DNA from: a virus | Strand: one strand, 5' to 3' | IMG/VR virus record: IMGVR_UViG_3300036715_000530 | Location: 1-47,592 of that record | DNA length: 47,592 nt | Shown: piece after piece, positions 1 through 47,592 of the stretch | Layout of the letters: the number at the start of each line of letters is the position of its first letter | How positions within the stretch are numbered: position 1 is the first letter of the stretch | Made by a program: the position numbers and the translations under genes | Notes under the pieces: model-generated | What the model was told of the DNA's origin: nothing | The model's database searches: none | What the model saw: the letters and a program-made list of their open reading frames with translations, nothing else

Positions 1-116
1 CTTCGTTTGGAATGCCGCGTGATAGCTTCGGCCCACATTTCGGTATGCGCTCCACTAACGAGTATTGTCGTGCCGAATTTGTCAAAGGTTGGAACGCTTG
101 CGAAGGCGTTAAGTAA
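1..116 (+). CDS. 3' end of the small protein that starts at 47295 (partial)
   Basis: This is the C-terminal part of the 61-residue protein encoded in full at 47295-47480, cut by the window edge. The first complete codon is at base 3 and the stop is TAA at 114-116. It exists only because the contig ends overlap. No function is recognised; see the full copy. Confidence 0.85.
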   Translation, partial: SFGMPRDSFGPHFGMRSTNEYCRAEFVKGWNACEGVK

Positions 117-228
117 TTTTCACAAGGGAGATTTTCACAATGATTACCGACGCACAGCTTCAGAAATTTTGTGATGACGTTTTGGCAATGCGCCGCGAAT
201 ACAATTGCAAACATGGCTATGGTGATGC
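1..228. repeat. Terminal direct repeat, left copy
   Basis: Bases 1-228 match 47365-47592 except at one position: G at 127 against T at 47491. The repeat holds the 3' end of one small gene and the 5' end of the next. It either shows that the contig closes into a circle or permuted genome of about 47,364 bp, or is a short true terminal redundancy. The odd base lies in the ribosome binding site of the gene at 140. Confidence 0.95.
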
Positions 229-433
229 CGGCAGCATGACGTTTACGCGCGGCGGCAAATACGCCAGAATTATTAAGGAAGATGAGCAACACTCGGTTTT
301 CTGCTTTGTCGATTTGGCTACGGGCTCGATCCTGAAGGCGGCGGGGTGGAATGCGCCCGCGAAGGGTGCTAGAGGCCACATTGACAACGGGGCGCGCGAC
401 GTTGGGCCATACGGGGCAGCATACAAGCGCTAA
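140..433 (+). CDS. Small conserved phage protein, 97 aa
   Basis: A 97-residue soluble protein of unknown function. The central part (GKYARIIK, then VFCFVDLATGSILKAAGW, then APAKGARGHI) has the look of a small conserved phage family that I have no functional name for. The start follows a GGGAG ribosome binding site in a leader that repeats TTTTCACA on both sides; a similar leader precedes the gene at 35347. It lies between the portal gene and the MuF gene, in the same direction, with the small gene at 47295 just upstream. It is probably an accessory gene inserted in the head operon. Confidence 0.75.
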   Translation: MITDAQLQKFCDDVLAMRREYNCKHGYGDAGSMTFTRGGKYARIIKEDEQHSVFCFVDLATGSILKAAGWNAPAKGARGHIDNGARDVGPYGAAYKR

Positions 434-442
434 GGCTGGCCA

Positions 443-2362
443 GTGACGCAATCGGTTGATGACAAGCTATTTCACGAGGTCATTACGAACGCCTTGGACG
501 TAGAGCGCCTTAAGGCAGGCGAGGCGCGAAACGTTGTCAAGATGATTGCCGCCATGGCGCAGGAACTTAGCGCCGAATTAGAAGCCGGTGAATTGAGCGG
601 GCTTAGGCGTAGCGAAGTCGAGAAGTTCCTAAAGAACGCCAGCGAGATTATCCGCCAGCATTACACCGATATTGCCGAGCTATCCGACTTTTCCAGCATT
701 TCAGCAACGGTACAACATGCCACCGCGTCAAGCCTAGAGATGGTTCTAGGAATTGACGCGGTTAGCTTGCCATCTAAATTTTATACCAATTCAGTTAACA
801 GCAACGTTATGATTGAGGGTTCGCCAACTGCCGATTGGTGGCGCGGACAAGCCGAAAATGTAGTTGAGCAGTTCGTTAGTAATGTGCGTCTTGGCTTGAC
901 CGCTGGCGAGACGAACGAACAAATTACCCGGCGAATTGTGGGCAGTTCCGGCGAAGCCGGCATTTTGGACGTTGCCACTAGAGACGCTAGAACCTTAGTT
1001 CATTCGTCTATTCAGACAGTAGCCAATGACGCTAGGCGTAAAACCTTTGAAGCTAACAGCGACATAATCAAGGGAATTAAACAAGTCTCAACCTTAGATG
1101 GTCACACTACCATAATTTGCGTTAGCTATAGCGGCGCTAGCTGGAACTTGGATTATGAGCCAATTAACGGAAATGATTTGCCTTATAACGGAGGAGCGCC
1201 GCGCCACTGGAATTGCCGTAGCGCAGAAGTTCCAATAACAAAGACATTTGCCGAGCTAGGCTTAGCTGGCGTCAAAGAACCGCCAGTTTCGACTAGAGCT
1301 AGTGTTGACGGCCAGATCGCAGGCGACACCACATTTGAAGGCTTCCTTAGGGGTAAGAGCATTGCCTTTCAGGATGAATTGTTGGGTGCAGGACGCGCCG
1401 AGCTATGGCGTAGCGGCAAGATAACATTGCGCGACTTGGTAAGCGGCGAAGGAAACCCGCTAACGCTTTCGGAATTGATGGCTAAGTACGGCTTTAGTTC
1501 GAAGACGGGAGGATTTAGCGCCGAAGACTTTATGAAACGGTTTGATGATCCGAACGCTACAGCCGCTTCGATTTTAGCTAAGTTTCCTTCAAATACCAAG
1601 GCCAAAATTCTAGAAGTCGAAGCTAAGATAAGCAAACTAACTCCTACTTCTGCCTTATATTCGAAAGCCGGTGTTTACACTTCAGCAAGAGAGAAATTGC
1701 ACCAAGATATTCTTTATAAAGGTGTCAATGGGTTTGATCCTAAAACCAGCAAGAGCAAGTTTTATCCTCCTTTGATTAGCAAAGCTAAGTTAGAAGCCGC
1801 TATTACAAATTCCGATAAGCCCACATTTACCATCTTAGGCGGGCGCGGCGGCTCCGGTAAAAGTGCTTTTGACGGCCAGAAATTCCCGCAAGCCAAAGTT
1901 TATGATAAAGACAAAGTTATCTTGTTTGATAGCGATGTTATTAAGCATATGTTGCCAGAATTTAGAGGCTTCAATGCTAACCAAGTTCACGAAGAAAGTT
2001 CGGATATTCTTCGAATGGCAATTGAGGAAGCCAAGCAACACCGCGCAAATATTGTTTTAGATGGCACCTTGAAAAGCCGCGAAAGCGCACTAAGTAATGT
2101 GCATAGCTTCATTGATGCCGGATATAAGGTTGAGGCGCATTATATGCACCTTCCGAGGCAGGAAGCCGCCGCCCGCGCCATTGCTCGCTTTTTGGGTCCA
2201 ACTGGCCGCTACGTTTCCGCTGATATCATTCTTGGAAATATTCAGAATGAAGAAACATTCGACGAAATAATAAAGCTAGTTGATGAATGGAGTTTCAGAG
2301 ATAACAACGTTCCTAGGGGCGAGCCTCCTAGATTAATCGCCTCAAAAAGAAAGCATGTGTAA
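443..2362 (+). CDS. MuF-type minor head protein fused to a C-terminal zeta-toxin-like kinase
   Basis: A 639-residue two-part protein. Residues about 140-300 carry the MuF/SPP1 gp7-like head domain: a helical region, then STLDGHTTIICVSYSG at 216-231 and the diagnostic HWNCRS at 255-260. A helical linker (about 300-455) leads to a P-loop kinase of the zeta-toxin type: Walker A GGRGGSGKS at 466-474, DSD at 496-498 followed by LPEFRG, LDGT at 539-542, and GPTGRYV at 585-591. Known zeta toxins phosphorylate UDP-N-acetylglucosamine and block cell-wall synthesis, while MuF proteins sit inside or near the portal. I infer a toxin packaged in the virion. The start is GTG at 443, 9 bases after the preceding stop. 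A 54-aa gene overlaps the stop codon. Confidence 0.88.
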   Translation: MTQSVDDKLFHEVITNALDVERLKAGEARNVVKMIAAMAQELSAELEAGELSGLRRSEVEKFLKNASEIIRQHYTDIAELSDFSSISATVQHATASSLEMVLGIDAVSLPSKFYTNSVNSNVMIEGSPTADWWRGQAENVVEQFVSNVRLGLTAGETNEQITRRIVGSSGEAGILDVATRDARTLVHSSIQTVANDARRKTFEANSDIIKGIKQVSTLDGHTTIICVSYSGASWNLDYEPINGNDLPYNGGAPRHWNCRSAEVPITKTFAELGLAGVKEPPVSTRASVDGQIAGDTTFEGFLRGKSIAFQDELLGAGRAELWRSGKITLRDLVSGEGNPLTLSELMAKYGFSSKTGGFSAEDFMKRFDDPNATAASILAKFPSNTKAKILEVEAKISKLTPTSALYSKAGVYTSAREKLHQDILYKGVNGFDPKTSKSKFYPPLISKAKLEAAITNSDKPTFTILGGRGGSGKSAFDGQKFPQAKVYDKDKVILFDSDVIKHMLPEFRGFNANQVHEESSDILRMAIEEAKQHRANIVLDGTLKSRESALSNVHSFIDAGYKVEAHYMHLPRQEAAARAIARFLGPTGRYVSADIILGNIQNEETFDEIIKLVDEWSFRDNNVPRGEPPRLIASKRKHV

Positions 2363-2526
2363 TGGCCAATAGAAAATTTGATAAAATGATTAGGGATAAC
2401 CCGGAAGCGTTTGACTATGCTGATTTGCCGACGCCGGGTGTAACGGCGGCACAGAAAGCCGAGGCCGATAGAATTAGGCCAGCTTGGGCAAAGGAAATGC
2501 TTGCCAAGCGCAACGCCGCCACTTAA
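2362..2526 (+). CDS. 54-aa helical protein directly behind the MuF-zeta gene
   Basis: The ATG shares bases with the TAA of the MuF-zeta gene (TAATG), so translation is probably coupled. The product is short, charged and probably helical (begins MANRKFDKMIRDNPEAF, ends EMLAKRNAAT), with no recognised domain. In polymorphic MuF toxins the immunity gene usually follows immediately, and epsilon antitoxins are small helical proteins, so this is a candidate antitoxin. It is shorter than epsilon and I see no direct similarity. It could equally be a small head accessory protein. Confidence 0.7.
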   Translation: MANRKFDKMIRDNPEAFDYADLPTPGVTAAQKAEADRIRPAWAKEMLAKRNAAT

Positions 2527-2590: not shown

Positions 2591-3304
2591 ATGGCATATG
2601 ATCCAAATGATCCCGCTGATAAGGCAATTGTGCAAGGTTTAATCGACGCGGCTTTAGAGGAAGCCGAAACCGAGCATGAAGCCAATAAGGCAGGTCTAAT
2701 TAAAAAGAACGCCGACCTTTTAGACAAGATTAAAAAGCTTCGTACAAGCGGCGGCGAAGTCGATACCGCCGAAATTACCCGGCTTGAAACCGAACTTGAA
2801 AATACGCAGCGTGATTTGCGCACCGCCGAAACTTCTAACCGGGAAGCTACGCGCCAGATCAAGGCACTTACGACCGAGCGCGACACGGCCAAGACTGCCT
2901 TGGAAACCGAAAGCGGATTTAGTCGCAAGTTACTTGTCGAAAACGGCTTGACCGATGCCTTAACCGGTGCCAATGTCGCGCCACAGTTCATGCCGGCCGC
3001 CCGCGCGTTGCTCGAAAAGCAAGTTGAAGTGAAGGCGGAAGGCGACAGCCGCACAGCGGTTGTAGGCGATAAGTCGCTAAGCGACTTTGTTAAAGATTGG
3101 TCGCAAAGCGATCAAGGCAAAGTGTTTATAGCGGCTCCCGCCAATGGCGGCGGCGGTACTCTACCCCCCGGCACACCGCCAAGCGGTTCCAAAAAGATTT
3201 ACGAAATGAACGATACCGAGCGCGTTGCTTTGTATAATTCAAATCCAACCGACTTTAATTCCCGCGTTGCAGCGGGTGAGAATAAAGCGCCACCTAAACA
3301 GTAA
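2591..3304 (+). CDS. Capsid scaffolding protein
   Basis: A 237-residue protein located just before the major capsid gene, the standard place for a scaffold. Residues about 15-120 are a long charged coiled coil rich in Glu, Lys and Ala. It is followed by a segment typical of phage scaffolds (ENGLTDALTGANVAPQFM) and a FVKDW...GKVFIAAPANGGGG tail, then a flexible Pro/Gly C-terminus. Scaffolds of this kind guide procapsid assembly and are then removed. The start follows AAGGGAAAG at good spacing. No protease gene is visible nearby, so processing is unclear. Confidence 0.82.
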   Translation: MAYDPNDPADKAIVQGLIDAALEEAETEHEANKAGLIKKNADLLDKIKKLRTSGGEVDTAEITRLETELENTQRDLRTAETSNREATRQIKALTTERDTAKTALETESGFSRKLLVENGLTDALTGANVAPQFMPAARALLEKQVEVKAEGDSRTAVVGDKSLSDFVKDWSQSDQGKVFIAAPANGGGGTLPPGTPPSGSKKIYEMNDTERVALYNSNPTDFNSRVAAGENKAPPKQ

Positions 3305-3344: not shown

Positions 3345-4376
3345 ATGATCCGCTTATCTGATGTTTTCATCCCCCAAGTTTACGGCTCCTATACGGCGCT
3401 GAATAACCCCGAAACTTCGGCTTTTGTCGCGGCTGGCATTGTCAAGACTTCTGATTTGCTCAATCAGATTGCGGCGGCTGGTAGCAAGACGGTTATTGTT
3501 CCTTTCTGGAACGACATTGATCCGACGATTGAGCCGAACTATTCGAACGATGATCCGGCAGATTTGGCGGTTCCGAACGCAATCAATTCCGGCACCATGA
3601 CCGCGCGCAAGGCATGGCTTAACCAGTCTTTCGGGGAAATGGACCTTATTCAAGAGCTTGCTGGCCAGTCGCCATTGCAGCACGTCAAAAACCGTTTCGG
3701 CACCTACTGGGTGCGCCAGATGGAGCGGCGATTGATTGCGCAATGTGTGGGCATTTTGGCGGATAACGTCGCAAACGACGCTGGCGATATGCTGGTTGAT
3801 ATTTCCGGCCTTAGCGGCGGCGCAGAGCTTTTCAGTTCGGCTTCGTTCATTGATGCCGCCTATACTATGGGCGACCAAGTCGAGAATATCACGGCAATTG
3901 GGGTTCATTCCGCAATTGAAGCGCGCATGGCCAAGAATAACGAAATCGACACTATCCGCGATAGTGAAGGTCAGCTTGTCATGCGTACCTATAAGGGCCG
4001 CGCCGTCATTGTTGATGATAGCTTACCGGTTTCGGGTAGCGGTTCAAATCGCGTCTTCACGTCAATTCTTTTTGGCGGCGGTGCTTTTGGCTTCGGCGGT
4101 GTCGAAGGACAGGCTTTCGCAATGGGCGAAGGCGTCCCCAAGGTTGCGGCTGAAGTTTACCGCACGCCAATGGCCGGTAACGGCGGCGGCATGGAAAGCA
4201 TTTGGGAGCGCAAGACTTGGATTTTGCACCCCTTTGGTTTCGAGTGGATCGAAAGCGGCGCGGCTCTTGCCGAGTTTTCCCCAACTCTTGCCGACCTTCG
4301 CCTTGCGGCGCATTGGAACCGCATTACCGTTTCGCGCAAGCAAGTCCCGCTCGCGTTCATTAAGTCCAAGGCTTAA
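3345..4376 (+). CDS. Major capsid protein
   Basis: A 343-residue protein following the scaffold and flanked by two hairpins, as expected for the most abundant virion protein. The N-terminus (IRLSDVFIPQVYGSYTALN) and the pattern of short Gly/Asp loops alternating with beta-rich segments match the phage coat-protein group that has an HK97-like fold and lacks a long cleaved N-terminal delta domain. The segment SPLQHVKNRFGTYWVRQMERRLIAQCVGIL resembles the long spine helix. The start follows AAAAGGA at 3330-3336. Position, size and sequence style agree. Confidence 0.88.
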   Translation: MIRLSDVFIPQVYGSYTALNNPETSAFVAAGIVKTSDLLNQIAAAGSKTVIVPFWNDIDPTIEPNYSNDDPADLAVPNAINSGTMTARKAWLNQSFGEMDLIQELAGQSPLQHVKNRFGTYWVRQMERRLIAQCVGILADNVANDAGDMLVDISGLSGGAELFSSASFIDAAYTMGDQVENITAIGVHSAIEARMAKNNEIDTIRDSEGQLVMRTYKGRAVIVDDSLPVSGSGSNRVFTSILFGGGAFGFGGVEGQAFAMGEGVPKVAAEVYRTPMAGNGGGMESIWERKTWILHPFGFEWIESGAALAEFSPTLADLRLAAHWNRITVSRKQVPLAFIKSKA

Positions 4377-4637: not shown

Positions 4638-5159
4638 ATGTTAAGTTTAGCAGAACGCCATACCGACCGCGTAAAGCGCAAGGCCGAGAATATGCTCGAT
4701 AGCCTAGCCTCTAGCGGCGGTGGTGTCGGCGCGGCTCTTGCTCACGCGGTTAACTTTACCGATGCTTTGGCGGGTTTAACCGAAGACGAGCGCAACGAAG
4801 TTATGCGGACTTCCGAAGACGGTTTCCGCAATGCAATGTCCGGCGATGTTGTTGCGGATATGACCAAGTATGCCGGTATTGGCATCCCTAATCCGCTTAT
4901 CGTCCCTCCCGGCGATATGCCTCCCTTGGTCGATTTGGGCGCCGTGGAGAAGGTGCAGGCAGGCGACAAGAGCGGTTGGGGTGACACGAGCGGCAACGCG
5001 AACGGACGAGCCATTGCAGCGCAGGATACGGGCGCTAGCTCGAACAACGGCGCGGCTAGCGAGACGCCAGAGGAGATCGCCAAGCGCGAAGCCAAGGCGC
5101 AGGCTACCCGCGATGCCAAGGGCGACGGCACCACGACCATTATTCCTGCCAAGAAATAA
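4638..5159 (+). CDS. Putative head accessory protein, 173 aa
   Basis: The N-terminal half looks helical and folded (LSLAERHTDRVKRKAEN, then AALAHAVNFTDALAGL), while residues from about 110 onward are low in complexity: Ala, Gly, Asn and Lys rich and probably disordered. I do not recognise a family. It sits between the head-fiber-like gene and the head-tail connectors and is closed by a clear terminator, so a head-associated role is likely. The start follows AAGGAAAGG with good spacing. Confidence 0.7.
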   Translation: MLSLAERHTDRVKRKAENMLDSLASSGGGVGAALAHAVNFTDALAGLTEDERNEVMRTSEDGFRNAMSGDVVADMTKYAGIGIPNPLIVPPGDMPPLVDLGAVEKVQAGDKSGWGDTSGNANGRAIAAQDTGASSNNGAASETPEEIAKREAKAQATRDAKGDGTTTIIPAKK

Positions 5160-39209: not shown

Positions 39210-39294
39210 GCGAGCGTGGCGAAATTGGTAAACGCATGAGACTTAAAATCTCCCGGCTTAGGCTTTGCGGGTTCAAGTCCCGCCGCTCGCACCA
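39210..39294 (+). tRNA. tRNA-Leu(UAA) with encoded CCA
   Basis: The acceptor stem GCGAGCG pairs with CGCTCGC; discriminator A and CCA end at 39294. The anticodon loop CTTAAAA gives UAA. A class II variable arm (CCCGGCTTAGGCTTTGCGG region) and the T arm GGGTTCAAGTCCC are clear. One T-C mismatch lies at the base of the anticodon stem. It reads TTA, a codon used often in this phage. Confidence 0.92.
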
Positions 39295-39311: not shown

Positions 39312-39464
39312 ATGGGTAATAGCACGGCTCATATTGCACGTCGTGACGAAATCAATGAAAGACTTAGCGAAATGACGTTCAGGCAAATTTGCGAACTTGT
39401 TTGCACGTTAGAAGGCAGGATTGCTCAACTTGAATTACTTAGAAGGGATAAAGTCAATGCTTAA
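39312..39464 (+). CDS. 50-aa coiled-coil protein
   Basis: It starts after CACAAGGAAAAGCCC. The sequence (RRDEINERLSEMTFRQICELVCTLEGRIAQLELLRR) is a clear amphipathic coiled coil. No family recognised. Overlaps the next gene by eight bases. Confidence 0.62.
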   Translation: MGNSTAHIARRDEINERLSEMTFRQICELVCTLEGRIAQLELLRRDKVNA

Positions 39465-40119
39465 TTATACGTCATGCGGCAAGGAAATTCTTGTTAGCAA
39501 TGTCCATTTTGGCGAAGCATGTAGCGAAGACGATGCCAATGCTGTTGTCGAGGCGCTTAATACAATGGAAAACAAGCCCGATAAATTCGATTATGTTGCT
39601 GAAGCTAACGTGACTTTGAGCAATCAATTTCATGGCGAGCTAGTGCCATTGTTTTCTTTTGGCCATACTCTCGATGCTGCTATCGCGGCTTTGTCCGGCT
39701 TAGACATTGTGAAAAAGTCGTTGTTTTATGGGCGGCCTAACAACTTATCAATTTCTCCAACCGATAACTATTGCGAGCTTTTGCCGCATAAAATTGCCGT
39801 TAATTCCGATACGATGACGGTTGTCGATGCCGAAAAAGTTATACATGGTATTATCGGTCTTGCTACTGAAGCTGGCGAGTTGCTAGAGCTATTGCGCGAC
39901 ACGCTTAACGGCATGCCGCTGGACCTTACCAATCTTAAGGAGGAAGTCGGGGACGGCAAATGGTATATGGCCATTCTTGCGCGTGCGGCGGGCTTTGTGT
40001 GGGGAGATGATGAGCGCTCTAACATTGCCAAGCTTCGCGCTCGCTTCCCTAACGCCTTTACCGAATACGACGCCAACAATCGGAATTTGGACAGCGAAAG
40101 AAAAATTCTCGAAAGTTGA
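39457..40119 (+). CDS. MazG-like NTP pyrophosphohydrolase with N-terminal extension
   Basis: 220 residues from ATG 39457. The C-terminal half has the MazG-type helical bundle: HGIIGLATEAGELLELL (E138, E141) and LKEEVGDGKWYMAIL (E162, E163, D166). The N-terminal 110 residues form a separate domain of unknown type, beginning YTSCGKEILVSNVHFGEACSEDDANAVVEALN. Phage MazG proteins hydrolyse NTPs or dNTPs, or lower (p)ppGpp. The cysteines in the N-terminal domain may bind a metal. Confidence 0.8.
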   Translation: MLNYTSCGKEILVSNVHFGEACSEDDANAVVEALNTMENKPDKFDYVAEANVTLSNQFHGELVPLFSFGHTLDAAIAALSGLDIVKKSLFYGRPNNLSISPTDNYCELLPHKIAVNSDTMTVVDAEKVIHGIIGLATEAGELLELLRDTLNGMPLDLTNLKEEVGDGKWYMAILARAAGFVWGDDERSNIAKLRARFPNAFTEYDANNRNLDSERKILES

Positions 40120-44066: not shown

Positions 44067-45333
44067 AGCTACACCACAAAAAATTATTGAACTAACCAAA
44101 CCACAGTTTGAATTAGTTACAACCGATAAACAGTTTCCGGCAATGGTAGCTGGTTTCGGCGCTGGTAAAACCAATGCCTTAATGAAACGTGCGTTGTTTC
44201 TTAAGTTCAAATATCACACTTTGAATATTGCCTATTACTTGCCCACATATGACCTTGTTAGAACAATCGCGTTCCCTCGCTTTCAAGAGGAATTGGCGGA
44301 TATAGGCATGTTCGAAAAAGAACATTACAGCCTAATTCAAAGCCTAACACCAATGATTAAGTTTAATGGCGCAGGCAATATTATTATGCGTACCATGGAT
44401 AATCCGGGGCGCATTGTTGGTTACGAAGTCGCGGACAGTCTAATTGACGAATTAGACACAATGAAGACTGAAGACGCGCGCACAGCTTGGCGAAAGATAT
44501 TGGCTCGCAATCGCCAAAAGAAACCCGACGGGGCTAAAAACACTATTGCAGTCGGTACTACTCCCGAAGGCTTTAAGTTTGTTTATGAGCAATGGAAACA
44601 AAAGCCGCCTAGCGATGAATACCATTTAATCAAAGCAAGTACGCATAGCAACGCGCGTAACTTGCCAGACGGTTATATTGATGATCTAATGGCGGATTAC
44701 CCGACCGCTCTAATCTCTGCTTACATTGATGGCGAATTTGTCAACTTAACTAGCGGTTCGGTATATCCCGAATATGACCGGGCGCTTAACCGGAGTAACC
44801 AGCGGGTAATTACAGGCGAAGCGCTGCATTTCGGCATGGATTTTAATGTGGGCAAAATGGCGGCGGTTTGCTTTGTTCAACGCGAGGGTTGGCCGCATGC
44901 TGTTGCGGAAATAGTTGGAGTGTTAGACACTCCCGCCATGATCAAAGCCATTAAAGCACGCTATCCGCATCATACAATTTTTGTTTATCCCGACGCCAGC
45001 GGGGCGGCTAGAAAATCGAATAATGCTAGTGTTTCAGATTTAGCCTTGTTGGGTCAAGCTGGTTTTAATGTGTTGGCCAATTCAACAAATCCGGCAGTTA
45101 AAGATAGAATTTTGTCGATGAATATTTTGTTAGGTAAAAGACAATTACGGGTAAACGACGATTTTTGTCCTAGCTTCGCTGAAGGCTTGGAGAAGCAATC
45201 TTATAATGATAAGGGGGAGCCGGATAAGACCAGCGGCTTCGATCACGTTAACGACGCGGGCGGCTATTTCGTTTGTTTCCGTTTCCCGGTTATCGGGCAG
45301 CGAGTGCAAAAAGCAAGAATAGGTGGTGTATAA
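44059..45333 (+). CDS. Terminase large subunit
   Basis: 424 residues from ATG 44059. ATPase: Walker A GFGAGKT 32-38, Walker B SLIDELD 127-133, coupling motif VGTTPEG 165-171. Nuclease: GMDFN (D261) and VYPDASG (D312), followed by NDAGGY. This is the complete packaging motor plus headful nuclease of the PBSX/terminase_6-like kind. It cuts and pumps concatemeric DNA through the portal. Overlaps the small subunit by eight bases and the portal by one. Confidence 0.92.
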   Translation: MLEATPQKIIELTKPQFELVTTDKQFPAMVAGFGAGKTNALMKRALFLKFKYHTLNIAYYLPTYDLVRTIAFPRFQEELADIGMFEKEHYSLIQSLTPMIKFNGAGNIIMRTMDNPGRIVGYEVADSLIDELDTMKTEDARTAWRKILARNRQKKPDGAKNTIAVGTTPEGFKFVYEQWKQKPPSDEYHLIKASTHSNARNLPDGYIDDLMADYPTALISAYIDGEFVNLTSGSVYPEYDRALNRSNQRVITGEALHFGMDFNVGKMAAVCFVQREGWPHAVAEIVGVLDTPAMIKAIKARYPHHTIFVYPDASGAARKSNNASVSDLALLGQAGFNVLANSTNPAVKDRILSMNILLGKRQLRVNDDFCPSFAEGLEKQSYNDKGEPDKTSGFDHVNDAGGYFVCFRFPVIGQRVQKARIGGV

Positions 45334-46808
45334 TGGTTATTGCAACTGGCGTTAAAACCCGGCACCGCGACTTTGGCACTTATGCTAATAAATGGCAGCG
45401 CGTTCGCGATGTTATTTCCGGTCAAGAGGCAATGCACAACGCCGGTGTTCGTTACTTGCCGATGCTTGCAGATCAAAAGCCGGAAGCTTATCAGTCATAT
45501 TTAAGGCGCACTACTTTTTACAATGCCAGCTTTCGCACAGTTTCCGGCTTTAATGGTATGCTATTTCGTAAGCCGCCTACCATTGAAACCGACGACACAT
45601 TACAAATTCTGTTAGATGATGTTACTATGTCGGGCGTTCCTTTTGAAACGTTCGTCGAAAATATTTGCTTTGAAAACTTAACGGTTAGCCGAGTTGGTAT
45701 TTTAGTTGATCATCCGGTGCAATTTACAAATGCAGATGGCACAACGCCAACTGTTGCCCAAATCGAGCAGGCCAATATCCGGCCTTCTATGCTTATGTAT
45801 AAGGCAGAAAGCATAATCAATTGGAAATTTTCCTTTATCAAAAACAAAAATGTTCTTACGCAAGTTAGGTTGTTAGAACATGCCGAAATTGCTAAGAATG
45901 AATTTGAAAGCGAAATGCAAGTCAATATTAAAGTCTTAGACTTAGTTGATGGCAAATATAGAATGCGTGTCTTTAAGGAAGAAAGCGAAGAACAAATCGG
46001 CGAAGACGTTTACCCATTAATGAACGGCAAGAATTTGGATTTTATTCCGTTCTATTTGATTAGTCCTAGTGGCATTGAAGGCCATTTAGAGGAACCCATC
46101 TTTATTGATTTGTTCGATTTGAATATCCAACATTATAGAGTTAGTGCTGATTACGAACACGGCTCGCATATGACGGGGCTTCCTACCCCTTATATTTGCG
46201 GCTATCAAAACACTTTTGATCAAACCGGGGTAATCAAACCCGCTGATTTTTATATCGGCTCTAGCGTTGCTTGGGTTTTTGCCGACCCGCAAACCAAGGT
46301 TGGCTTTCTGGAATTTACCGGCACTGGTCTAACGGCACTAGAAGCCAATCTAACCCGCAAGGAAGCGCAAATGGCGGCTATCGGTGCGCGTATGCTCGCG
46401 CCTGAAAAGTCGGGCGTCGAAGCGGCGGAAACGCTATCAATGCGACACAGCGGCGAAAACAGCATTTTATCGGCAATCGCCAACGCCTGTAGCTTGGGCA
46501 TTATGAAGGCGCTAGAAACCTTTGCCGCTTGGGCAGGATCAAAGGGCAAAATCAAATTCGAAATTAACCGCGAATTTCTCCCCATTGGTGTTGATGGTCG
46601 CACGCTAACGGCTTGGGTTGGCTTGGTGCAAGCTGGCATGTTATCCAAGGAAAGCGCCTTCGATTTGATGAAGCGTGGCGAAATGATTGACGAAGAATTG
46701 AGTTATGAAGACGAACAAGCCCGCATTGACAGCCAGCCGCCACCGGCACCGATAGCGCCTAAACCGGGCGTTCAACCGGCGCCTAAAAATAATCCAATTC
46801 CGGCTTGA
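45333..46808 (+). CDS. Portal protein (DUF4055-like)
   Basis: 491 residues; ATG shares bases with the terminase TAA (TAATG). The N-terminus RVRDVISGQEAMHNAGVRYLPML and the later SYLRRTTFYNASFRTVSGFNGMLFRKPP are typical of DUF4055 portals, followed by a beta clip region and a helical C-terminus (TALEANLTRKEAQMAAIGARML, GVDGRTLTAWVGLVQ). The C-terminal 30 residues are Pro-rich. Forms the dodecameric DNA channel. Confidence 0.88.
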   Translation: MVIATGVKTRHRDFGTYANKWQRVRDVISGQEAMHNAGVRYLPMLADQKPEAYQSYLRRTTFYNASFRTVSGFNGMLFRKPPTIETDDTLQILLDDVTMSGVPFETFVENICFENLTVSRVGILVDHPVQFTNADGTTPTVAQIEQANIRPSMLMYKAESIINWKFSFIKNKNVLTQVRLLEHAEIAKNEFESEMQVNIKVLDLVDGKYRMRVFKEESEEQIGEDVYPLMNGKNLDFIPFYLISPSGIEGHLEEPIFIDLFDLNIQHYRVSADYEHGSHMTGLPTPYICGYQNTFDQTGVIKPADFYIGSSVAWVFADPQTKVGFLEFTGTGLTALEANLTRKEAQMAAIGARMLAPEKSGVEAAETLSMRHSGENSILSAIANACSLGIMKALETFAAWAGSKGKIKFEINREFLPIGVDGRTLTAWVGLVQAGMLSKESAFDLMKRGEMIDEELSYEDEQARIDSQPPPAPIAPKPGVQPAPKNNPIPA

Positions 46809-47294: not shown

Positions 47295-47480
47295 ATGATT
47301 ATCAATCACCAAACCATTGACGCAATGAAAACCGATCATCCGTTCGCCGCTGGCGCGCTGGCCGCTTCGTTTGGAATGCCGCGTGATAGCTTCGGCCCAC
47401 ATTTCGGTATGCGCTCCACTAACGAGTATTGTCGTGCCGAATTTGTCAAAGGTTGGAACGCTTGCGAAGGCGTTAAGTAA
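47295..47480 (+). CDS. Unknown 61-aa protein
   Basis: It follows AGAGGAACAGGAAA. Sequence MIINHQTIDAMKTDHPFAAG, then FGMPRDSFGPHFGMRSTNEYCRAEFVKGW. Unrecognised, short and soluble. Its last part is repeated at 1-116 by the contig overlap. It lies between portal and MuF genes under a palindromic promoter. Confidence 0.7.
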   Translation: MIINHQTIDAMKTDHPFAAGALAASFGMPRDSFGPHFGMRSTNEYCRAEFVKGWNACEGVK

Positions 47481-47592
47481 TTTTCACAAGTGAGATTTTC
47501 ACAATGATTACCGACGCACAGCTTCAGAAATTTTGTGATGACGTTTTGGCAATGCGCCGCGAATACAATTGCAAACATGGCTATGGTGATGC
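47365..47592. repeat. Terminal direct repeat, right copy
   Basis: Same 228 bases as 1-228 apart from T at 47491 (G at 127). It contains the end of the 47295 gene, the intergenic leader and the first part of the gene at 47504. Confidence 0.95.
47504..47592 (+). CDS. 5' part of the 97-aa gene (partial copy of 140-433)
   Basis: Identical in protein to the first 29 residues of the gene at 140; cut by the window end. In this copy the upstream ribosome binding site reads GTGAG rather than GGGAG because of the single mismatch. Confidence 0.85.
   Translation, partial: MITDAQLQKFCDDVLAMRREYNCKHGYGD

What the first reader, a model, noticed from the sequence alone, without database searches (positions are those of the whole stretch)
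443..2526. MuF head protein carrying a zeta-toxin-like kinase, with a candidate immunity gene overlapping its stop
One frame joins a head-morphogenesis domain (HWNCRS) to a P-loop kinase with zeta landmarks (GGRGGSGKS, DSD, LDGT, GR). MuF-linked toxins are known from temperate phages, where the toxin is thought to ride in the capsid and be injected. Here no integration genes are visible, so a virion-borne cell-wall toxin in a virulent-looking phage would be unusual. The 54-aa gene in TAATG overlap could be an unrecognised antitoxin that protects the producing cell. Alternatively the kinase modifies a sugar nucleotide for another purpose.
Basis: partly seen in the sequence, partly recalled or inferred. 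Interest (0 to 1): 0.85.

Follow-up and report, generated by a model that had tools for sequence, protein, structure and literature searches.

The report
Phage head kinase with conserved partner
A virus of bacteria carries, on the end of one of its shell proteins, a kinase of a toxin family, and the tiny overlapping gene behind it belongs to an apparently undescribed family of small proteins that accompanies this kinase in many other phages, probably as its antidote.

Summary
ORF 443-2362 joins a MuF-type head-morphogenesis protein (residues 1-365) to an intact zeta-type P-loop kinase (365-639). A 54-aa gene overlaps its stop (TAATG). The record is a complete phage genome (228-bp terminal repeat, one mismatch) with no recombinase found.

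MuF-zeta fusions were reported in 2017 (Iyer et al.), so the fusion alone is not new. The small gene is the real find. The kinase belongs to a mostly viral subfamily (175 IMG/VR relatives, 13 in GTDB genomes). A profile of small ORFs trained without the window finds the 54-aa ORF at E=2e-6. It detects a partner in 42 of 67 non-redundant loci, every one beside the kinase: overlapping downstream, nested out of frame, convergent on the opposite strand, or fused in frame. Searching by the partner's motif returned 9 of 9 kinase contigs. MuF relatives without the kinase lack it. In five relatives the kinase shares a frame with the portal protein, which supports a virion-borne role.

Best reading: a head-carried, probably injected nucleotide kinase with a cognate small inhibitor, working like AvrRxo1-AvrRxo2. 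Inhibition and substrate (UDP-GlcNAc, NAD or other) are inferred, not shown.

The parts
443..2362 (+). MuF-kinase fusion protein, 639 aa, GTG start
443..1537 (+). Head-morphogenesis (MuF-type) carrier, residues 1-365; its close relatives (354-377 aa) end at about this point and have no kinase
   Evidence: PHROG 241 E=3.8e-92; L002-L005
1535..2362 (+). Kinase module, residues 365-639: helical lead-in plus zeta-type core; shared as one unit with 63 other non-redundant phage and bacterial loci
   Evidence: alignment A4; AlphaFold pLDDT 96
1802..2248 (+). Zeta_toxin core, residues 454-602
   Evidence: Pfam PF06414 78.3 bits
1859..2209 (+). Span of the catalytic residues: P-loop K473, base D498, D540/T542, arginines R578, R582, R589; each invariant in 64/64 relatives
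2362..2526 (+). 54-aa partner gene, overlapping the kinase stop; predicted inhibitor/antidote
   Evidence: profile trained without it: E=2.1e-6 and 1.9e-6
2398..2430 (+). Partner-family motif NPEAFDYADLP (family consensus RPDLYDxYD)
   Evidence: alignment A7
2591..3304 (+). Head scaffolding protein
   Evidence: PHROG 206 E=4e-18
3345..4376 (+). Major head protein
   Evidence: PHROG 247 E=1.8e-99
45273..46808 (+). Portal protein, upstream of MuF when the genome is closed
   Evidence: PHROG 145 E=3.4e-126
1..228 (.). Direct terminal repeat, left copy
   Evidence: one mismatch to 47365-47592
47365..47592 (.). Direct terminal repeat, right copy

Best explanation
The locus encodes a two-gene effector module in the head operon of a complete, probably virulent tailed phage. 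The kinase is carried on the MuF head protein, so it is built into or next to the portal in the virion and probably enters the next host with the DNA, where it phosphorylates a small nucleotide-type metabolite. The 54-aa protein, made from a start codon overlapping the kinase stop, binds the kinase and keeps it inactive in the cell that is producing new virions. Shown here: the fusion, intact catalytic residues, the zeta/AvrRxo1 fold, and the partner family with its physical linkage to the kinase. Inferred: virion packaging, injection, binding and inhibition, and the substrate.
For: Kinase: Pfam Zeta_toxin 78.3 bits. The AlphaFold model (pLDDT 96) matches zeta toxin 1gvn (Z 16.5, 198 residues, 3.0 A), AvrRxo1 4z8u (Z 16.4, 212 residues, 2.9 A) and PezT (Z 15.9); the next group, polynucleotide kinases, is at 12.8. 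K, D, D-x-T and three R residues are invariant in 64/64 relatives. Partner: an HMM built without the window finds the 54-aa ORF at E=2e-6; it detects a partner in 42 of 67 loci, all at the kinase, none elsewhere in about 855,000 aa of six-frame translation. The reverse search by partner motif gives 9/9 kinase contigs (compared). Natural fusions to the kinase C-terminus exist (L171, L174, L019, L022, L132), and convergent antisense copies in L017, L149, L094, L110. Purifying selection: e.g. L142/L144 pS 0.47 against pN 0.07. Four MuF relatives without the kinase have no partner. Virion link: portal gene in 35 of 66 other kinase loci, usually just upstream, and five portal-kinase fusions. Mechanistic precedent: AvrRxo2, encoded downstream of the zeta-like kinase AvrRxo1, potently inhibits it (PMC5087710).
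Against: No binding or inhibition was measured and the complex could not be modelled as two chains. In the fused homologue L171 the linker is disordered (pLDDT below 50) and the partner segment only moderate (71-83), with no coordinates to see docking. In-frame fusions are awkward for a simple antidote, because the inhibitor would travel with the toxin. A rumen clade (L020, L021, L024, L179) has the kinase and no detectable partner. Short MuF relatives can also have small unrelated ORFs behind them (L002, L004). The window is the only MuF carrier found in this kinase subfamily, so virion carriage by the other members rests on portal fusion and neighbourhood.
Confidence: 0.6

Rival explanations
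1. Injected counter-defence enzyme: the kinase modifies a nucleotide used by host immunity (for example NAD or a signalling nucleotide) early in infection, rather than poisoning cell-wall synthesis; the small protein limits this activity late in infection.
For: Fold tie with the NAD 3'-kinase AvrRxo1, which also shares the ER..LH and VHxESS motifs. UDP-GlcNAc contacts only partly kept: T118 yes, R120 to K, but T128 lost and the window has R524 where zeta has E100 (contacts from PMC3062530). Genes around relatives include DarB-like antirestriction (L143), and one viral relative is annotated as an anti-CBASS Acb1 protein.
Against: Substrate cannot be read from sequence. The residue at the E100 position is acidic in 52/64 relatives, so a UDP-sugar substrate is not excluded for the family. 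Neighbourhood evidence is indirect.
Confidence: 0.35
2. UDP-GlcNAc kinase toxin in the strict zeta sense: injected enzyme drains peptidoglycan precursors to weaken the wall or help entry, as proposed by Iyer et al. 2017 for MuF-zeta fusions.
For: Pfam and PDB profile hits rank zeta first (1gvn E=3e-15); catalytic base and T118 equivalents invariant.
Against: T128 (uracil contact) not conserved; E100 equivalent is R524 in the window; AvrRxo1, which is not a UDP-GlcNAc kinase, is structurally as close.
Confidence: 0.3
3. The small protein is an activator, chaperone or assembly factor of the kinase protein rather than an inhibitor.
For: In-frame fusions to the kinase (L171, L019, L022, L132, L174) keep both parts together, and the genes lie in head operons.
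Against: Convergent antisense copies (L017, L149, L094, L110) and out-of-frame nested copies are unusual for an assembly factor; the partner stays with the kinase on different carriers and is absent from MuF genes without it; AvrRxo2 set a precedent for inhibition by a downstream small protein.
Confidence: 0.25
4. Head protein with a decayed or decorative kinase domain of no enzymatic function.
For: Long branch of the window kinase in the tree (1.23) and a few lineage-specific substitutions (R524).
Against: All catalytic positions intact in the window and invariant in 64/64 relatives; high-confidence fold.
Confidence: 0.07

Closest known systems
AvrRxo1-AvrRxo2 (Xanthomonas NAD 3'-kinase and its inhibitor)
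   Same: Zeta-type kinase fold (Z 16.4 over 212 residues), ER..LH lead-in and VHxESS motif, small partner encoded immediately downstream
   Different: Type III effector acting in plants, not on a phage head protein; no detectable similarity between any solved chain, AvrRxo2 included, and the 54-aa family; substrate of the phage enzyme unknown
Epsilon/zeta and PezAT toxin-antitoxin systems
   Same: Kinase fold, P-loop, catalytic base, T118 equivalent
   Different: No epsilon/PezA-like antitoxin; partner is a 54-aa protein encoded downstream; some UDP-GlcNAc contacts not kept; carried on a head protein
MuF polymorphic toxins (Jamet et al. 2017, PMC5576092)
   Same: MuF-type N-terminus, enzymatic C-terminus, small ORF directly downstream, packaging-operon location
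   Different: Phage shows no temperate genes; zeta or kinase domains are not named in that paper's main text
MuF-zeta polyvalent proteins noted by Iyer et al. 2017 (PMC5512222); Cyanophage PSS2 gp030
   Same: MuF-type head protein joined to a zeta-like kinase in a phage (PSS2)
   Different: PSS2 protein is 1499 aa with the kinase internal; no partner gene described for them in the papers searched
MuF-VIP2 fusions of AXL1 (PMC9206674) and Microbacterium phages Goodman, Johann, Percival (PMC7302621)
   Same: Toxin-like enzyme fused to MuF, some in phages without temperate genes; AXL1 protein found in virions
   Different: ADP-ribosyltransferase instead of kinase; no partner gene reported in the passages read

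Membership tests
Zeta toxin (PF06414, zeta/PezT) | Profile match above curated cut-off | tested here: met
   78.3 bits against 22.3
Zeta toxin (PF06414, zeta/PezT) | Zeta kinase fold | tested here: met
   1gvn Z 16.5, 198 residues, 3.0 A
Zeta toxin (PF06414, zeta/PezT) | P-loop Lys, catalytic Asp (D67), Thr118 equivalents | tested here: met
   K473, D498, T542; invariant 64/64
Zeta toxin (PF06414, zeta/PezT) | UDP-GlcNAc contacts E100, R120, T128 | tested here: inconclusive
   R120 to K544 (conservative); E100 to R524 in the window but D/E in 52/64 relatives; T128 not conserved (contacts from PMC3062530)
Zeta toxin (PF06414, zeta/PezT) | Partner antitoxin of epsilon/PezA type | tested here: not met
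   Partner lies downstream, 54 aa, no Pfam or PDB match
AvrRxo1-AvrRxo2 | Kinase fold plus lead-in and VHxESS motif | tested here: met
   4z8u Z 16.4, 212 residues; profile E=9e-6
AvrRxo1-AvrRxo2 | Small inhibitor encoded downstream in the same operon | tested here: inconclusive
   Downstream overlapping partner present and conserved; inhibition not measurable, no similarity to AvrRxo2 detected
AvrRxo1-AvrRxo2 | NAD 3'-kinase activity | not testable with these tools
   needs an enzyme assay
MuF polymorphic toxin (Jamet 2017) | MuF-type N-terminal head domain | tested here: met
   PHROG 241 E=3.8e-92; Pfam Phage_Mu_F only 19.1 bits, below cut-off
MuF polymorphic toxin (Jamet 2017) | Variable C-terminal toxin cassette | tested here: met
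   Close MuF relatives end where the kinase begins
MuF polymorphic toxin (Jamet 2017) | Small ORF under 150 aa directly downstream | tested here: met
   54 aa, overlapping stop
MuF polymorphic toxin (Jamet 2017) | Encoded by a temperate phage | tested here: not met
   No tyrosine or serine recombinase or HTH_3 match in a genome with terminal repeats; other repressor types not excluded

The most novel reading that the evidence does not exclude
The YDxYD small proteins are a new inhibitor family for a virion-borne, injected clan of zeta/AvrRxo1-type nucleotide kinases that ride on MuF, portal or other head proteins, kept beside the kinase in any orientation (overlapping, nested, antisense or fused), and the kinase serves as an injected counter-defence or takeover enzyme acting on a nucleotide other than UDP-GlcNAc.
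Probability: 0.3. Interest if true: 0.82.

Novelty: new variant of a known kind. Interest (0 to 1): 0.62.

Why it matters
Zeta toxins are known with epsilon-type antitoxins, and I found no antidote described for the zeta kinases that phages carry on head proteins. A small partner kept beside this kinase in most of the phages surveyed gives a directly testable toxin-antidote pair, a handle on what phages inject with their DNA, and a reason why a lytic phage could carry a self-harmful enzyme in its own head. The portal-kinase fusions suggest that the delivery point is the portal vertex.

Tried and rejected
Chance ORF for the 54-aa gene: rejected by the family profile and the linkage. Direct searches with the 54-aa sequence alone found nothing in phage records or viral contigs, which would have suggested an orphan; only the kinase-anchored survey revealed the family. 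Searching viral contigs with the single kinase sequence also found nothing; the alignment did. An alignment of small ORFs with the fused protein was discarded because MAFFT aligned them to the kinase core, so the fused-homologue model used only natural fusions and kinases. Similarity of the partner to AvrRxo2 or any solved structure: none reported at E up to 10. Docking of the partner on the kinase could not be judged: no coordinates are available and the linker is disordered. Codon-level tests of the nested out-of-frame genes were not done. Literature searches for a described zeta-kinase partner in phages found none, but the library holds open-access papers only.

Full report
WHAT IS THERE. 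ORF 443-2362 encodes 639 aa and ORF 2362-2526 encodes 54 aa; they share one base in TAATG. The first 365 residues are a head-morphogenesis protein (PHROG 241, E=3.8e-92) and residues 454-602 match Pfam Zeta_toxin at 78.3 bits (cut-off 22.3). Scaffold and major head protein genes follow. Terminase and portal lie at the other end of the record and become neighbours of the MuF gene when the genome is closed: positions 1-228 repeat at 47365-47592 with a single mismatch. The record is therefore taken as a complete genome of about 47.4 kb. Tyrosine recombinase, serine resolvase and HTH_3 repressor models find nothing, while a phage DNA polymerase, primase, processivity factor, Cas4-type exonuclease and Sak4-like annealing protein are present. 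A virulent lifestyle is likely but not proven.

THE KINASE IS INTACT. An alignment of 64 relatives (A4) shows the P-loop lysine K473, base D498, D540, T542, R578, R582 and R589 invariant in all 64. AlphaFold gives pLDDT 96 for residues 365-639. The best solved structures are zeta toxin 1gvn (Z 16.5, 198 residues, 3.0 A) and AvrRxo1 4z8u (Z 16.4, 212 residues, 2.9 A), tied, then PezT (15.9); polynucleotide kinases follow at 12.8. A profile search gives the same set: zeta 3e-15, PezT 6e-8, AvrRxo1 9e-6, the last with shared ER..LH and VHxESS motifs. Of the UDP-GlcNAc contacts described for zeta (PMC3062530), T118 is kept and R120 is K. T128 is not kept, and the residue at E100 is acidic in 52 of 64 relatives but R524 in the window. 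The substrate is open.

THE CASSETTE IS AN ADDITION TO MuF. The four nearest MuF proteins in viral contigs (354-377 aa, 28-51% identical) stop where the kinase begins. In L003, whose scaffold and capsid proteins resemble the window's, the scaffold gene starts about 40 bases after MuF with no gene between. L002 and L004 have other small ORFs there, which warns that a small ORF alone proves little.

THE PARTNER FAMILY. Searching with the kinase alignment gave 175 related stretches in viral contigs (80 kept) and 13 in genome contigs; with earlier loci they reduce to 67 non-redundant kinases at 85% identity. Small ORFs of about 43-82 aa with the motif RPDLYDxYD start at or over the kinase stop in many of them. 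A profile seeded from six of these and allowed to recruit from 3,499 ORFs (3,446 of them classed beforehand as controls) recruited only ORFs beside the kinase, and with the window kept out of training it scored the 54-aa ORF at E=2.1e-6. Against six-frame translations of all 67 loci (about 855,000 aa) it found a partner in 42, all adjacent; the one flagged as distant, L181, starts two bases after the kinase match given. Several are nested out of frame inside a longer C-terminal tail of the kinase gene (L097, L098, L101, L123, L152, L154, L156). L094 and L110 carry it convergently on the other strand. By eye, L017 and L149, which group with the window kinase and L158 in the tree (support 90/81), carry a YDGFD protein convergently. 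In L171 (by profile) and in L174, L019, L022 and L132 (by eye) the motif is fused in frame to the kinase. The reverse search, by partner motif, returned nine loci, all contigs already known for the kinase. MuF-only loci and 64 loci with more distant zeta kinases have no member; some of those distant kinases have a different small-ORF family ending in V(D/E)IPxE. Unsaturated pairs show purifying selection on the small ORF. The family matches nothing convincing in Pfam and nothing in the PDB. Exceptions are a rumen clade without a detectable partner (L020, L021, L024, L179) and a few others.

THE CARRIERS ARE HEAD PROTEINS. Thirty-five of the other 66 kinase loci hold a portal gene, usually directly upstream, and in five (L025, L131, L146, L148, L168) the kinase shares a reading frame with a portal protein (L146 confirmed by Pfam Phage_portal_3). 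Only the window joins this kinase to MuF. Cyanophage PSS2 gp030 is a more distant head-morphogenesis plus kinase fusion. Different virion carriers with the same kinase and partner fit a mobile effector cassette delivered from the portal vertex.

HOW IT PROBABLY WORKS. The closest worked-out analogue is AvrRxo1-AvrRxo2, where a small protein encoded downstream inhibits a zeta-like NAD kinase at equimolar amounts (PMC5087710). By analogy the 54-aa protein keeps the kinase silent in the producing cell. Packaging is supported by analogy with the AXL1 MuF-VIP2 protein found in virions (PMC9206674). Fused forms are the main difficulty for a simple antidote, since the inhibitor would travel with the toxin; they may need processing or act as cis regulators.

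KNOWN OR NEW. Iyer et al. 2017 already noted zeta-like kinases fused to MuF and suggested wall weakening (PMC5512222). Jamet et al. 2017 reported no toxin-bearing MuF in virulent phages (PMC5576092), but later MuF-VIP2 fusions in lytic phages changed that (PMC7302621; PMC9206674). I found no description of the partner family or of portal-kinase fusions in the open-access library. Verdict: new variant of a known kind, with the partner family as the new part.

Noticed in passing
L025, L131, L146, L148, L168: Kinase in one reading frame with a portal protein; I found no description of portal-kinase fusions.
   Followed up: partly
L036:4023-4244, L038:5609-5830, L040:5621-5842, L048:2553-2774, L030:5780-5962, L059:3193-3366, L031:5666-5938, L077:5697-5888: A second, unrelated family of 57-90 aa small ORFs (most ending V(D/E)IPxE) at the stop of more distant zeta-like kinase genes of phages.
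   Followed up: partly
C-terminal tails of kinase proteins, e.g. L011, L012, L093, L104, L103, L134: A recurring tail 'LTKSEQ..IILxWKR' precedes the partner gene; in longer proteins a similar 'IIFLKA' stretch follows and could be a processing or targeting signal.
   Followed up: no
L097, L098, L101, L123, L152, L154, L156, from about 4735-4790: Partner genes nested out of frame inside the kinase gene's linker: overlapping genes worth a codon-level test.
   Followed up: partly
L158:4806-4994 (+) and about 4969-5139 (-): Two copies of the partner, one on each strand, converging behind the kinase.
   Followed up: partly
window 1-228 and 47365-47592: Terminal repeat with one mismatch at position 127, so the record is probably a complete genome.
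   Followed up: yes
window 140-433: DUF7717 gene (97 aa) directly upstream of the MuF gene, related to several PHROGs of unknown function.
   Followed up: no
BFVD A0A6J5LTH6: A 1134-aa phage protein annotated as anti-CBASS Acb1 carries the same kinase fold at 46% identity, hinting at counter-defence context.
   Followed up: no
window 39421-40119: MazG-like pyrophosphatase gene next to a tRNA-Leu (39210-39294).
   Followed up: no
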